The notes under the pieces were generated by a model. That model did not search any database. It worked only from the letters and a program-made list of their open reading frames with translations, and was not told the DNA's origin. Below are positions 55,684 to 64,000 of a stretch of 64,000 nucleotides of DNA, piece by piece. This DNA is from Acidobacteriaceae bacterium. Its GTDB lineage: Bacteria; Acidobacteriota; Terriglobia; Terriglobales; Acidobacteriaceae. The stretch is taken from contig JAPWKE010000003.1 in NCBI GenBank assembly GCA_028283655.1, positions 62,001 through 126,000 on the forward strand. Direction: 5' to 3'. The first letter of the stretch is position 1, and every line of letters begins with the position of its first letter. The position numbers and the translations under genes are program-made.

Positions 55684-58032
55684 ATGAAAACATCGCGACA
55701 GACATTGACCGCACCCATTCGTCGGGTGCGCTTTGTCTATGTGGCGATGTTTTTCTGCTTCTGGACGATTGTGATTGCATTGCGCCTGGTGTGGCTGCAG
55801 GTGATTCAGCACCAGCATTACGTGGAACGCGCAGCGCAGCAGCAGGAGCGTACGTTTGAGGTGGCCCCGCGGCGTGGTGTGCTCTATGACCGCAACCTTC
55901 GCGAGCTGGCGATGACGGTGCTGACGGACTCGGTGTATGCGGTGCCGAAGGAGCTGGGCGAGAACCGCGAGAACGCTGCGGAGCTGCTGGCGAAGATCGT
56001 TCATACGGACCCACAGGACCGGTTTACAAGCGAACACCAGATGATGGCGCGTTTCAATGCCTCGCGCAACTTTGCATGGGTGGCTCGCAAGCTTGATCCG
56101 GATACAGCGCAGCGTGTGCGTGAGCTGAACCTGAAGGGCGTGTACTTCCAGAAAGAGTTCAAGCGCTTCTATCCGAACTCTGATCTAGCGGCGCATGTGC
56201 TGGGGTATGTGGGCACGGATGACAACGGTCTGGCCGGCCTGGAGAGCGAGTTTGACGATGAGTTGCATGGCACGCCGGGGCACATGCTCACGGCGGTGGA
56301 TGCGAAGCGGCATGTGATGGGTTCGGTGGAGAGTGAGCCTATGCCGGGTGAGAACCTGGTGCTTACTATCGACGCAAATATCCAGTACATGGCGGAGCGC
56401 GCGCTGGATGCGCAGGTGGCGAAGTTCAAGGCGTTGCACGGAACGATTGTGGTGCAGGACCCGCACACGGGGAACATTCTGGCGCTGGCGGTGAGCCCGC
56501 GTTTCAATCCGAATGATTCGAGGCATATTGAGCCCGGCCAGTTGAATAATCTCGCGGTGAGCGATGTGTATGAACCTGGTTCGACGTTCAAGCTCGTGAC
56601 GTATGCAGCGGCGCTGGATGGCGCAGGTGTTGAGCCGACGGACAAGGTCGATTGCCAGGGCGGCGCGTGGACGATGTATGGCCGTACGCTGCATGACGAT
56701 AAAGACGACCACTTCGGCGTGGTGAGCGTGCAGTATGCGCTGGAGCACTCGAGCGATGTGGGCGCGGCGAAGCTGGCGATGAAGCTTGGCAACGACAAGT
56801 TCTACAAGTACATCAAGGGCTTCGGGTTTGGCGATCGCAGCGGCATTGAACTGCCGAGTGAGACGCGCGGGCTGCTGCGGAATCCGCGCAAGTGGGGCGC
56901 GACGAGCTTCATGTCGATTGCTATCGGCCAGGAAGTGGGCGTGACGCCTGTTCAACTGGTGACGATGGTGTCGACGATTGCGAATGGTGGCGTGTATCTG
57001 CCGCCGCACGTTCTGCTGGAGTCGACGGACGAGGTGAAGGGTGATCCTCGGTTGGCGACGCGTCCGTTCAAGCCTGTGATGCAGTTGCCGAAGGATCTGC
57101 CGGATGGTTCCCGGCGCGTGATCAGCGAGATGACCAGCGCGAAGATGCGCATGATGATGCAGGGCATCGTGACCGAGGGCACGGGCAGGCTGGCTGCGCT
57201 GAACGGCTATAGCTCGGCGGGTAAGACGGGCACGGCGGAGAAGATTGATCCGGCGACGCATACGTACTCGCACACGAAGCTGGTGGCGAGTTTTGCAGGA
57301 TTCGCCCCGGTGAGTGCGCCGGCGATTTCTGTGGCGGTTGTGATTGACCAGCCCAGCGTGGGAACGGGCTACGGTGGAACGACGTCGGCACCGGTGTTCA
57401 GCGAGGTTGCGCAGGAAGTGCTGGAGTATCTGGGTGTACCGCATGACCAGCCGCTGAAGTCGAAGACGCAGTTTACACAGGAGCTGGCGGCGGTGAAGCC
57501 AGAGGCTGATGGCCCGAGCGATGTGGAGCCTTCGAGCGATCTGCAGGCGATGTATGACGAGGTGAACACATTGCCTCCGGATGATCCTTTGCGCCAGCCA
57601 CAGGCCGCAGCAGCGATTGCAGCGAACCAGGTGGCAGATGCTGCCGCGGCGGAAGCTTCGCAGCGTGCGGCGCTAGCGTCGGGTCAGCGCAAGGGTATTC
57701 TGGGGCTGCCGGATAAGGTGCTGGCAGCGTTCCATGCGAATGGGAATACGACCTCGGTGATGCCGGGGGCGAGCGTAACGACGCCCGTGCCAGCCACAAC
57801 GGTGCAGCCTTCTGTGCAAGTACGCAGTTCCACGGCCGTGGTGGTGGATGCAGGCAAGCGTGTGGCTGTGCCGGACTTCCACGGGCAGGCGTTGCGCAGC
57901 GTGGTGGAGAACGCCGGTGCGCTGGGGCTGCGTGTGCAGATGCTGGGCAGCGGACTGGCGAAGGACCAGGCCCCCGCTGCGGGGACGATGGTGCCTCCCG
58001 GCACGGAAGTGGTTGTGAGGTTCGCACGCTGA
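55684..58032 (+). CDS. ftsI: Division-specific class B penicillin-binding protein with a PASTA domain
   Basis: This 782-residue transpeptidase cross-links septal peptidoglycan. A single N-terminal membrane helix (FVYVAMFFCFWTIVIALRLVWLQVI) precedes the pedestal domain (RRGVLYDRNLRELA). The transpeptidase domain has the active site SxxK as Ser300-Thr-Phe-Lys303, the second motif as Ser356-Ser-Asp358 and KTG at 514-516. The second motif is normally SxN; Asp replaces Asn here. A linker of about 130 Ala/Pro-rich residues (roughly 590-720) leads to a C-terminal PASTA domain (VAVPDFHGQALRSVVENAGALGLRVQMLG). The stop codon overlaps the next start by one base. Confidence 0.95.
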   Translation: MKTSRQTLTAPIRRVRFVYVAMFFCFWTIVIALRLVWLQVIQHQHYVERAAQQQERTFEVAPRRGVLYDRNLRELAMTVLTDSVYAVPKELGENRENAAELLAKIVHTDPQDRFTSEHQMMARFNASRNFAWVARKLDPDTAQRVRELNLKGVYFQKEFKRFYPNSDLAAHVLGYVGTDDNGLAGLESEFDDELHGTPGHMLTAVDAKRHVMGSVESEPMPGENLVLTIDANIQYMAERALDAQVAKFKALHGTIVVQDPHTGNILALAVSPRFNPNDSRHIEPGQLNNLAVSDVYEPGSTFKLVTYAAALDGAGVEPTDKVDCQGGAWTMYGRTLHDDKDDHFGVVSVQYALEHSSDVGAAKLAMKLGNDKFYKYIKGFGFGDRSGIELPSETRGLLRNPRKWGATSFMSIAIGQEVGVTPVQLVTMVSTIANGGVYLPPHVLLESTDEVKGDPRLATRPFKPVMQLPKDLPDGSRRVISEMTSAKMRMMMQGIVTEGTGRLAALNGYSSAGKTGTAEKIDPATHTYSHTKLVASFAGFAPVSAPAISVAVVIDQPSVGTGYGGTTSAPVFSEVAQEVLEYLGVPHDQPLKSKTQFTQELAAVKPEADGPSDVEPSSDLQAMYDEVNTLPPDDPLRQPQAAAAIAANQVADAAAAEASQRAALASGQRKGILGLPDKVLAAFHANGNTTSVMPGASVTTPVPATTVQPSVQVRSSTAVVVDAGKRVAVPDFHGQALRSVVENAGALGLRVQMLGSGLAKDQAPAAGTMVPPGTEVVVRFAR

Positions 58033-58391
58033 TGCCTTCGCTCTGGCTCGCGGTTCCGATTGGTCTGTTGATTGGCGTGTGTGTGGGGCTGGCGGGAACA
58101 AGCGGTGCGTTTCTGATTCCCACGCTGGTGTATGTCTTCGGAGAGAGGCAACTACGGGCACAAGGAACGGCGCTCTTCATTGCGTTGACGCCGGTGTGGC
58201 TGGGGCCGCTGATTCCTTACTGGCGGTCCGGGCATGTGAACTGGCGTCTTGGCGCGGTGCTTGGAATAGGTTTGGCTGTGGGTGGGTATTACGGCGCACA
58301 ATGGGCGCAGCGGCTTCCGGAAGCCGTGGCGCGGCGATGCTTTGGCGGCATGTTGCTGGTGGTGGCGATACGTATGCTGGTGCAGCGATAG
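58032..58391 (+). CDS. Short TSUP-family (TauE/SafE) membrane protein
   Basis: This 119-residue protein has about four hydrophobic segments (WLAVPIGLLIGVCVGLAGTSGAFLIPTLVYVF, GTALFIALTPVWLGPLIPYW, GAVLGIGLAVGGYYGAQWA, CFGGMLLVVAIRML). The G-AGTSGAFLIP and LPEAVARRCFGGMLL segments resemble one half of TauE/SafE (TSUP) transporters, which usually have 240-270 residues and two such halves. It may work as a homodimer, like small TSUP members known elsewhere. The start overlaps the ftsI stop (TGATG) and murE starts nine bases after its stop, so it is translated within the dcw operon. Substrate unknown. Confidence 0.75.
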   Translation: MPSLWLAVPIGLLIGVCVGLAGTSGAFLIPTLVYVFGERQLRAQGTALFIALTPVWLGPLIPYWRSGHVNWRLGAVLGIGLAVGGYYGAQWAQRLPEAVARRCFGGMLLVVAIRMLVQR

Positions 58392-61390: not shown

Positions 61391-62524
61391 TTGCTTTTCT
61401 GGCTGCTTTATCAAAAGCTCTTTCCGTACTTTCGCCTGTTCCGAATTTTTCGGTACGTTACGTTTCGCTGCGTCTTCGCGAGCCTGACGGCGTTGCTGAT
61501 CGGGCTGCTGATTGGACCGTTTGTGATTGATCGGCTGCGGCAGTTTCAGATTGGCCAGTACATCCGCGAAGAAGGTCCGCAGAGCCACCAGAAGAAGGGT
61601 GGTACGCCGACGATGGGCGGCGTGCTGATCTGCATCAGCATTCTGGTCCCGACGCTGCTCTGGAGCGATCTGTCGAATCCCTTTGTGTGGCTGGTGATCT
61701 TCTCGACGCTGGCGTTTGCGGCGATTGGCTTTGCAGATGACTACATCAAGGTGGTGCATAAGCGGAACCTTGGGCTTACGTCGAAGCAGAAGTTGCTGTG
61801 TCAGTTTGTGGCGAGTGGAGCGGTGGCGATTGCGCTGCTGGTGCTGGATTGGCGCGGCATTTATTCGACGCGGCTGGTCGTGCCGTTTCTGAAGCAGTAC
61901 AGGCCGAACCTGATTATCGACAGCCTGCTACATACGCATCTTTGGCCGCTGGCTTTTTTGCCGTTCGTGCTGTTTGTGATGTTTGTGATCACGGGTTCGT
62001 CGAACGCCGTGAACCTGACCGATGGGCTGGATGGGTTAGCGATTGGCTGCACGATCATCGCTGCTGGTGCGCTGACAATGCTGACGTATGTGAGTGGCCA
62101 TGCGGTGTTTTCAAATTATCTCGAGCTGCAGCGAATGCCTGCGGTCAGCGAGCTGACGATCTTCTGCGGAGCGATGGTGGGGGCCTCGATCGGCTTCCTT
62201 TGGTACAACGCTCATCCGGCGGAGATCTTCATGGGTGACGTTGGATCGCTTATGCTGGGCGGCGCGATTGCGACGGTCGCGGTAGTGATCAAGCAGGAAC
62301 TGCTGCTGCCGTTTATAGGCGGTGTGTTCATCCTGGAAGCGCTGAGTGTGATGCTGCAGGTGGGCAGTTATAAGCTGCGCAAAGGCAAGCGTATCTTCCG
62401 CATGGCGCCGATTCATCATCACTTCGAACTGCTGGGATGGAGCGAGTCGAAGGTGATTGCGCGGTTCTGGATTCTGGCGCTGGTGTTTGCGCTGTTTGCG
62501 TTGACTACGTTGAAGCTGAGGTAG
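61391..62524 (+). CDS. mraY: Phospho-MurNAc-pentapeptide transferase
   Basis: This 377-residue integral membrane enzyme makes lipid I from UDP-MurNAc-pentapeptide and undecaprenyl phosphate. About ten membrane segments are seen. Motifs are EEGPQSHQKKGGTPTMGG, FADDYIKVVHKRNLGL (the catalytic Asp pair near 116-117), SSNAVNLTDGLDGLAIG and MAPIHHHFELLGW. The start is a TTG at 61391 with GGAGG about eleven bases upstream; no ATG gives the usual N-terminus. In most dcw clusters murD follows directly. Here the mazF stop codon lies eight bases beyond mraY on the other strand. Confidence 0.95.
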   Translation: MLFWLLYQKLFPYFRLFRIFRYVTFRCVFASLTALLIGLLIGPFVIDRLRQFQIGQYIREEGPQSHQKKGGTPTMGGVLICISILVPTLLWSDLSNPFVWLVIFSTLAFAAIGFADDYIKVVHKRNLGLTSKQKLLCQFVASGAVAIALLVLDWRGIYSTRLVVPFLKQYRPNLIIDSLLHTHLWPLAFLPFVLFVMFVITGSSNAVNLTDGLDGLAIGCTIIAAGALTMLTYVSGHAVFSNYLELQRMPAVSELTIFCGAMVGASIGFLWYNAHPAEIFMGDVGSLMLGGAIATVAVVIKQELLLPFIGGVFILEALSVMLQVGSYKLRKGKRIFRMAPIHHHFELLGWSESKVIARFWILALVFALFALTTLKLR

Positions 62525-62532
62525 GACGTGAG

Positions 62533-62868
62533 TCAGGCTGAACGAATTGCAGCTATTAATGTTTCTCGAATTTGCTCAAAGGCTGTGGTGCTTAGCTGGC
62601 CGAGCGTTTGTGTGATGAGATTCTCATGTGCTGAAAATAACTTCGTCGGGCGAGCATAGCTCACATGAGGAAGGCCGCCGGAAACGAAGGATGGTTTGTC
62701 GAGTGCAACGGCAAAGCGATCTGCAAAAGGATTGCTTGTGATTTGGCAGATAATCCAGTCGTGATGCTGTAACGGCACGAGAAGCAACGCTGGGCGAAGC
62801 TTGCGACCTGTGAGGTCGGAGTAAGGAAATGGAACAGCGACTACTTGACCAGCTGCAAGTATGCCCAT
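62533..62868 (-). CDS. MazF/PemK-like toxin endoribonuclease
   Basis: This 111-residue protein has the PemK/MazF fold: GQVVAVPFPYSDLTGRKLRPALLLVPLQHHDWIICQITS. It keeps the arginine-proline pair (RKLRPALLL) and the ITS segment that form the RNA-cleaving site. Members cut mRNA at short sequence motifs. The start overlaps the end of the upstream antitoxin gene by 28 bases in another frame, typical for toxin-antitoxin pairs. It stands antisense between mraY and murD and is AT-richer than its neighbours, suggesting acquisition by transfer. Active toxin function is inference from the family. Confidence 0.85.
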   Translation of the reverse strand: MGILAAGQVVAVPFPYSDLTGRKLRPALLLVPLQHHDWIICQITSNPFADRFAVALDKPSFVSGGLPHVSYARPTKLFSAHENLITQTLGQLSTTAFEQIRETLIAAIRSA

Positions 62869-63044
62869 GCTTCGTCCTCTTCCGGTCGCAACCAGTCGGC
62901 GAGTGCTTGTTCTGAGGCCTGGTAGAGTTCGTGATCTGCTGAGTCCCAGACCAGCGTTGCGTGACCATTGGGCAGAGTAATAGACGCATCTACTGGGCGG
63001 ATATTGCCGACTTTGTCGATTACGACCTCAACAGACCTTGTCAT
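62841..63044 (-). CDS. Antitoxin of the MazF-like pair
   Basis: This 67-residue protein begins MTRSVEVVIDKVGNIRPVD, resembling an AbrB-type or related antitoxin N-terminus (VxIDxxGxIxP). It ends with an acidic helix SEQALADWLRPEEDEAWAYLQLVK that could fit the toxin surface. It is the upstream partner of the mazF-like gene and overlaps it by 28 bases. ATG at 63044 with GAGG upstream; a longer frame to 63365 runs inside murD and is not supported. The start lies 61 bp from the murD start, head to head, so the pair's promoter must overlap the murD leader. The exact antitoxin family is not certain. Confidence 0.75.
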   Translation of the reverse strand: MTRSVEVVIDKVGNIRPVDASITLPNGHATLVWDSADHELYQASEQALADWLRPEEDEAWAYLQLVK

Positions 63045-63105
63045 CTCAACCTCGCGCTGGCGATCTTGATACAGTGCGATGATAGCAGTCGAGGAATTTG
63101 CGCGG

Positions 63106-64000
63106 ATGAGCATGGACGTCAAAGGCAAACGGATTCTGGTTGCAGGCATTGGGAAGAGCGGGCTTGCGGCGGCGCACTTTTTGAAGCAGCGTGGAGCGCG
63201 GGTGACGATCTCGGATTCGCGTCCGGCGACGTTGATTGCGGAGCTTCCGGGGTTGTTGGATAGTGCTGTCGATGTTGAGGTTGGCGGGCATGGCTTGCTG
63301 ACCTTTCGTCGGCAGGATTTGATTGTAGTTTCGCCAGGTGTGCCGCTGAGCGTGCCGGAGATCAAGCAGGTACGCGCGCTCGGGATGCGTGTGATCGGCG
63401 AGTTGGAGCTGGGGTATCAGTTCCTCGCAGGTGAGGTGATTGCGATCACCGGATCGAATGGCAAGACCACGACGACGACGCTGGTGGGCGAGATTTTGCA
63501 GGCCTCTGGCAAGCCTACGCAGGTGGGTGGGAATATCGGTACGCCTGTGACCGAGATGGTGGAGGGCTCGACAGCGGAGACGTGGTCTGTGCTTGAGGTT
63601 TCCAGCTTTCAACTGGAAACGATCGAGACGTTCAAACCTCGCATTGCGGCGGTGTTGAACATTACGCCCGATCATCTCGATAGGCATGGGTCGTTTGAGA
63701 ACTATGCGGCGGCGAAGGCGCGCATCACCGAGAAGCAGGATGCGAGTGATTTCCTGGTATTGAACGGTGAGGATGAGCCGACGAAGCTGGTCGCTGCGAA
63801 GACGAAGGCGCAGATTTTCTGGTTTAGCGCGAAGCGGCAGGTGAAGCGCGGAGCGTTTGTGGATCGCGATGCGGTGGTGTTTCGTCGCGAAGAAAATGGG
63901 CCGTTTGAGCCGGTGTTGCCGGTGAGCGAAATTCCGCTGGCCGGGCAGCACAACGTGGAGAATGTGCTGGCTGCGGTGGTAATGGCGAAGCTGGCGGGTG
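63106..64000 (+). CDS. murD: UDP-MurNAc-L-alanine:D-glutamate ligase, 5' part
   Basis: The first 298 codons of a MurD gene run off the right edge. MurD adds D-glutamate to UDP-MurNAc-L-Ala. Visible parts are GKRILVAGIGKSGLAAAHFLKQRGARVTISDSR (Rossmann-like UDP-binding domain), VSPGVP, ITGSNGKTTTTTLVGEI (P-loop), GGNIGTPV, LEVSSFQLETI, NITPDHLDRHG and PLAGQHNVENVLAA. The ATG at 63106 is preceded by GAGGAA nine bases upstream; a second ATG lies two codons later. The gene is partial only because the window ends. Between it and mraY lies an antisense toxin-antitoxin pair. Confidence 0.95.
   Translation, partial: MSMDVKGKRILVAGIGKSGLAAAHFLKQRGARVTISDSRPATLIAELPGLLDSAVDVEVGGHGLLTFRRQDLIVVSPGVPLSVPEIKQVRALGMRVIGELELGYQFLAGEVIAITGSNGKTTTTTLVGEILQASGKPTQVGGNIGTPVTEMVEGSTAETWSVLEVSSFQLETIETFKPRIAAVLNITPDHLDRHGSFENYAAAKARITEKQDASDFLVLNGEDEPTKLVAAKTKAQIFWFSAKRQVKRGAFVDRDAVVFRREENGPFEPVLPVSEIPLAGQHNVENVLAAVVMAKLAG

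What the first reader, a model, noticed from the sequence alone, without database searches (positions are those of the whole stretch)
62533..63044. Antisense toxin-antitoxin pair inside the dcw cluster, between mraY and murD
A MazF-like toxin and its antitoxin fill the gap between two normally adjacent essential cell wall genes, on the opposite strand. The toxin stop is only 8 bp from the mraY stop and the antitoxin start is 61 bp from the murD start. Readthrough from mraY to murD makes RNA antisense to the whole pair, so cell wall gene expression could repress the toxin operon, or the pair's promoter could collide with the dcw transcript. The block is AT-richer than its neighbours, which suggests recent insertion.
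Basis: partly seen in the sequence, partly recalled or inferred. Interest (0 to 1): 0.6.

Follow-up and report, generated by a model that had tools for sequence, protein, structure and literature searches.

The report
Long-resident antisense toxin-antitoxin pair in dcw
A bacterial self-poison gene and its antidote sit backwards between two essential cell-wall genes; they are not a fresh arrival, because relatives in two genera carry the same pair, or its wreckage, in exactly that gap, which makes it a good natural test of how an essential operon and a toxin on the other strand control each other.

Summary
The toxin is a MazF-fold protein (Pfam 1.4e-7; model pLDDT 92.7, Z 15.6 to MazF-mt3) with both catalytic-position residues (R25, T44). 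The antitoxin family has no Pfam or NCBIfam model, but is found across the class with a near-constant overlap.

'Recent insertion' is not supported. Of 398 genomes of the taxonomic family, 8 hold this antitoxin. They fall in two genera, and all 8 have it at the mraY-murD junction, antisense. None of 41 homologous loci from outside the family has a recognisable dcw gene in the fetched flanks. The eight form one branch (support 99). The toxin is intact in three; in four it is broken or lost, and in one it is replaced by a broken VapC. An extended -10 box (TGnTATnnT) lies 29-43 bp upstream of the antitoxin in 7 of 8, so the pair probably has its own promoter opposing the dcw transcript: a 'noncontiguous operon'. 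Mutual repression with dcw transcription is plausible but rests on architecture; no RNA or toxicity data exist.

The parts
62533..62868 (-). PemK/MazF-family toxin, 111 aa, ATG start inside the antitoxin gene; catalytic-position residues R25 and T44
   Evidence: PF02452 E 1.4e-7; MSA-based AF2 model pLDDT 92.7, Z 15.6 to MazF-mt3; K23/P26 invariant and R25/T44 at least 90% conserved in 31 homologues
62841..63044 (-). antitoxin, 67 aa, unnamed family with C-terminal motif DWxRPEEDEAWAYLQ; overlaps the toxin by 28 nt
   Evidence: homologues in 29 of 399 genomes of the class; 28-nt overlap in most loci; no Pfam or NCBIfam family at a meaningful score
63079..63087 (-). putative extended -10 promoter element TGCTATCAT, motif start 43 bp upstream of the antitoxin start
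   Evidence: TGnTATnnT at 29-43 bp upstream of the antitoxin in 7 of 8 carriers; shuffles give 0.05 of 8 on average, at most 3; motif chosen after seeing the sequences
62525..62532 (.). 8-bp gap between the mraY stop and the toxin stop; no room for a terminator
   Evidence: scan finds only one terminator-like site in 62300-63300, at chance level; the same gap is 6 bp in G290 and about 3 bp in G172
61391..62524 (+). mraY (host operon, upstream flank)
   Evidence: Glycos_transf_4 and MraY_sig1
63106..64000 (+). murD (host operon, downstream flank; runs past the window end)
   Evidence: Mur_ligase_M and MurD-like_N; start by comparison with relatives

Best explanation
The block is a type II toxin-antitoxin operon: a MazF/PemK-fold endoribonuclease and a small antitoxin of an unnamed family, encoded as an overlapping pair behind its own extended -10 promoter next to the murD start. 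It occupies the mraY-murD junction antisense to the dcw operon and has probably done so since before the two genera that carry it diverged (or spread between them long ago), being lost or broken in most lineages. Because the murD-side promoter fires towards mraY with no terminator, while the dcw operon must be read through to reach murD, the locus has the anatomy of a 'noncontiguous operon'. The likely behaviour is that dcw transcription in growing cells keeps the pair low, by polymerase collision and double-stranded RNA decay, and that the pair rises when dcw transcription falls. Shown: genes, fold, catalytic-position residues, site conservation, decay pattern, conserved promoter-like box. 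Inferred: ribonuclease activity, neutralisation, promoter activity, mutual repression.
For: Fold and residues; role of Arg25 and Thr48 in MazF from PMC7354611. Same site and orientation in all 8 carriers among 398 genomes of the family. No dcw gene near 41 homologous loci elsewhere. One branch for the dcw-resident pairs, support 99. Empty junctions of 2-37 bp in many relatives. Own promoter-like box in 7 of 8. Constraint on both proteins. Near-constant 28-nt overlap. Precedents for antisense control: noncontiguous operon (PMC7154746; PMC11087260) and a type II pair with antisense RNA processed by RNase III (PMC9325379).
Against: No RNA data, no toxicity data. The distribution is very patchy: one origin with vertical descent needs about 13 losses on the mraY tree, against 8 changes under free parsimony. 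In 5 of 8 carriers the PemK-type toxin is broken, lost or replaced, so the pair is not essential to dcw control. The consensus sigma-70 scan finds no promoter above chance, and the extended -10 motif was chosen after the fact. The antitoxin role rests on position, overlap and co-occurrence. Relatives express murD without the pair.
Confidence: 0.6

Rival explanations
1. A decaying selfish module in a tolerated spot: the mraY-murD gap accepts cargo, and the pair persists by addiction without regulatory exchange with dcw.
For: The junction holds other cargo in relatives: alpha/beta hydrolase in six genomes, small membrane proteins in about four, other ORFs. The PemK-type toxin is broken, lost or replaced in 5 of 8 carriers with the antitoxin frame usually kept, the usual order of decay of an addiction module.
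Against: All TA cargo found lies on the antisense strand while the other identified cargo is mostly co-directional; a promoter-like box is conserved; constraint on both proteins across genera.
Confidence: 0.4
2. Repeated arrival: the pair moved between lineages and re-entered the same junction by homologous recombination in the conserved flanking genes.
For: Patchy distribution; within the family the pair tree does not follow the genera well: genus monophyly is 16 log units worse, p-AU 0.08, not rejected.
Against: Flank identity between carriers is not raised near the junction compared with non-carriers, so no recent exchange is visible; the eight form one branch against all others.
Confidence: 0.3
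3. Recent insertion in this genome alone.
For: Low GC and GC3 of the block; the two closest relatives lack it (G140, G169).
Against: Homologous pairs or relics at the same junction in G172 and G154 of the same genus and in five genomes of a second genus; the pair of G000 lies inside that branch; relative G140 keeps 32 bp of the spacer upstream of murD, promoter-like box region included.
Confidence: 0.05

Closest known systems
MazF/PemK type II toxin-antitoxin systems (PF02452)
   Same: toxin fold, catalytic-position Arg and Thr, small upstream antitoxin gene overlapping the toxin gene
   Different: antitoxin is not MazE, PemI or another family in Pfam or NCBIfam; site is fixed, antisense inside the dcw cluster
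Noncontiguous operon (S. aureus menE-menC-MW1733-ytkD; phage 80alpha tha-1/ith-1), PMC7154746, PMC11087260
   Same: gene(s) with their own promoter inside an operon on the opposite strand
   Different: here the antisense unit is a toxin-antitoxin pair and the host operon is the essential cell-wall cluster; co-transcription across the block not shown
Type IIb relBE2-asRelE2 of M. tuberculosis, PMC9325379
   Same: type II pair with RNA made from the opposite strand that could drive RNase III decay
   Different: there a dedicated antisense RNA; here the antisense would be the dcw mRNA itself, untested

Membership tests
MazF/PemK toxin (PF02452) | profile score above the curated cut-off | tested here: met
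   32.1 bits against 23.1
MazF/PemK toxin (PF02452) | MazF fold | tested here: met
   model pLDDT 92.7; top 50 Foldseek chains all MazF-like; Z 15.6, rmsd 2.1 over 100 residues to 9ikd_B
MazF/PemK toxin (PF02452) | catalytic Arg and Thr | tested here: met
   R25 and T44 in the window, at least 90% conserved in 31 homologues, aligned with the K-R-P and T-S positions of MazF6; roles from PMC7354611
MazF/PemK toxin (PF02452) | sequence-specific endoribonuclease activity | not testable with these tools
   needs a bench assay
MazE / PemI / other named antitoxin family | profile match | tested here: not met
   none of nine members matches a Pfam or NCBIfam antitoxin at a meaningful score; best is RelN at 0.03 for one member
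Type II toxin-antitoxin operon | two small overlapping genes, antitoxin first, conserved as a pair | tested here: met
   28-nt overlap in 13 of 15 tabulated loci, 25 and 31 nt in the other two
Type II toxin-antitoxin operon | antitoxin protein neutralises the toxin | not testable with these tools
   needs a bench assay
Noncontiguous operon | antisense gene between genes of one operon | tested here: met
   mraY and murD are 2-37 bp apart in many relatives, block antisense between them here; that they are one operon is inferred from spacing
Noncontiguous operon | antisense unit has its own promoter | tested here: inconclusive
   conserved extended -10 in 7 of 8, but no consensus promoter by the general scan
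Noncontiguous operon | operon mRNA spans the antisense gene; reciprocal regulation | not testable with these tools
   needs strand-specific RNA data

The most novel reading that the evidence does not exclude
A selectively kept noncontiguous operon, shared by two genera, in which an essential cell-wall operon and a MazF-type toxin operon silence each other, so that the toxin pair reads dcw transcription as a growth signal; the same antisense slot also takes other toxin families (VapC in one relative, with the antitoxin N-terminus kept in a chimera).
Probability: 0.2. Interest if true: 0.8.

Novelty: new variant of a known kind. Interest (0 to 1): 0.5.

Why it matters
The dcw cluster is among the most conserved gene orders in bacteria (established knowledge), and a toxin operon lodged antisense inside it poses a clear question: does transcription of an essential operon gate a toxin? 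The mix of intact, broken and empty junctions in related genomes is a ready-made natural experiment, and the VapC module in the same slot shows how toxin families can exchange while an antitoxin N-terminal domain stays. The antitoxin family itself has no model in Pfam or NCBIfam.

Tried and rejected
Mobile carriage: no phage match; plasmid matches for the toxin only at 30-52% identity to distant toxins, none for the antitoxin. Defence-system models: none. Named antitoxin families: none. Single-sequence structure: useless (pLDDT 44), replaced by the 31-sequence model. Recent flank-mediated transfer: local identity of mraY and murD ends not raised between carriers. Consensus promoter and terminator scan: nothing above chance. 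The first 150-genome searches with one protein each found no further carrier of the pair (only a weak, stop-ridden toxin match in G027), since the sample lacked G172 and G154 and a single sequence of a fast-evolving family reaches little; the profile search corrected this. The organism and genus names were not determined. No paper found on a toxin-antitoxin pair at mraY-murD (only openly licensed papers held).

Full report
What is there. Between mraY (61391-62524, plus) and murD (start 63106, plus) lies a minus-strand pair: an antitoxin of 67 aa (62841-63044) and a toxin of 111 aa (62533-62868), overlapping by 28 nt. GC is 0.52 against 0.57-0.60, GC3 0.45 and 0.58 against 0.71-0.77.

The toxin. 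PF02452 PemK_toxin at 1.4e-7, above the curated cut-off. A 31-member alignment gave a model with mean pLDDT 92.7. The top 50 Foldseek chains are all MazF-like proteins, and VIA-align 2 gives Z 15.6 to MazF-mt3, rmsd 2.1 over 100 residues. A profile of the alignment finds MazF6, MazF and EndoA in the PDB at 3e-8 to 2e-7. Arg25 and Thr44 match the Arg and Thr positions that carry activity in B. cereus and B. subtilis MazF (PMC7354611). Ribonuclease activity is therefore likely but not shown.

The antitoxin. No Pfam, NCBIfam or PADLOC family. Its profile hits 29 of 399 genomes of the class, some of them only with fragments. The better-preserved loci carry a PemK-type ORF whose start lies 28 nt before the end of the antitoxin gene (13 of 15 tabulated; 25 and 31 nt in the other two). 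A tryptophan and the EED-x-A-W stretch near the C-terminus are invariant in nine members.

The site. With the nine-member antitoxin profile, 8 of 398 genomes of the family are carriers, three in the window's genus (G000, G172, G154) and five in a second genus (G290, G311, G690, G686, G357). All eight lie between mraY and murD, antisense. The toxin stop abuts the mraY stop by 8 bp in G000, 6 bp in G290 and about 3 bp in G172. The antitoxin start is 61-118 bp from murD in six of the eight, 308 and 1029 bp in G154 and G290. None of 41 homologous loci from other families or phyla has a detectable dcw gene in the fetched flanks, usually 1.5 kb a side. The eight form one branch with support 99.

Decay and exchange. 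The toxin is intact in G000, G290 and G686, frameshifted in G172, cut after about 5 aa in G154, after 21 aa in G311, and gone in G690. In G357 the first 33 residues of the antitoxin (52% identical, E 2e-11) are joined to a different C-terminal part and followed by a VapC-family toxin (TIGR00028, 4.9e-14) that is itself broken across frames. In G686 a HigA-like helix-turn-helix ORF lies on the same antisense strand (weak, HTH_3 0.008). Some breaks could be assembly errors. Protein change is constrained: pN 0.19-0.34 against pS 0.58-0.84, with synonymous sites near saturation.

History. Many relatives have an empty junction of 2-37 bp. On the mraY tree one gain with vertical descent needs about 13 losses, and free parsimony needs 8 changes. 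Constraining the pair tree to the two genera costs 16 log units, p-AU 0.08. Flanks of carriers show no raised identity, so no recent exchange is visible. The nearest relative G140 lacks the pair but shares 32 bp of the spacer upstream of murD. I therefore favour one old arrival at this site with frequent loss, some old exchange not excluded.

The junction as a cargo site. Among the junctions measured over 20 genomes of the genus, mraY-murD varies from 14 bp to 1.1 kb, while most other short junctions stay tighter; murG-murC is 1.2-3.5 kb wherever it could be measured, and ftsI-murE holds a TauE-like gene in four. Other cargo at mraY-murD, where identified, is mostly co-directional: an alpha/beta hydrolase in six genomes, small membrane proteins, and others. 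The toxin-antitoxin cargo seen is antisense.

Control. The general scan finds no consensus promoter or terminator above chance. Comparing the eight carriers, TGnTATnnT lies 29-43 bp upstream of the antitoxin in seven (window 63079-63087, minus); shuffled sequences give 0.05 of 8 on average and never more than 3. The motif was chosen after inspection, so this is strong but not clean evidence. With 8 bp to mraY and no terminator found, the toxin transcript should run into mraY antisense, and dcw transcripts must cross the pair to reach murD. That is the noncontiguous-operon arrangement described in S. aureus (PMC7154746) and used by phage 80alpha to switch the Tha defence (PMC11087260); a type II pair with antisense RNA and RNase III is known in M. 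tuberculosis (PMC9325379). Mutual repression here is inference.

Verdict. Real, well-preserved pair with a known toxin fold and an unnamed antitoxin family, in an unusual and old location. New variant of a known kind.

Noticed in passing
window 58032-58391 (+): A 119-aa TauE/SafE-like half protein (PF01925, profile positions 124-237) sits between ftsI and murE; the same junction holds it in 4 of 20 genomes of the genus.
   Followed up: partly
L095:13231-14190 (-), past the window end: murG-murC is 1.2-3.5 kb wide in every genome of the genus where it could be measured; here it holds an antisense glycine-rich protein with a WXXGXW repeat. A second antisense gene inside the dcw cluster.
   Followed up: partly
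L050, L051, L052, L045, L049, L056 (mraY downstream region): In six relatives an alpha/beta hydrolase of about 233 aa lies just after mraY on the plus strand, between mraY and murD where murD is on the same contig.
   Followed up: partly
L035, L057, L044, L040 (mraY-murD gap): Small membrane-protein-like ORFs (about 74-94 aa where intact) lie in the gap in four relatives, one with its ATG overlapping the mraY stop.
   Followed up: no
L164:4602-5447 (-): Chimeric antitoxin: N-terminal 33 residues of the PemK-type antitoxin joined to another C-terminal part, next to a broken VapC toxin, at the same antisense site.
   Followed up: partly
L163:7150-7566 (+): HigA-like helix-turn-helix ORF (weak HTH_3 match) on the antisense strand of the same junction, beside an intact PemK-type pair.
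   Followed up: no
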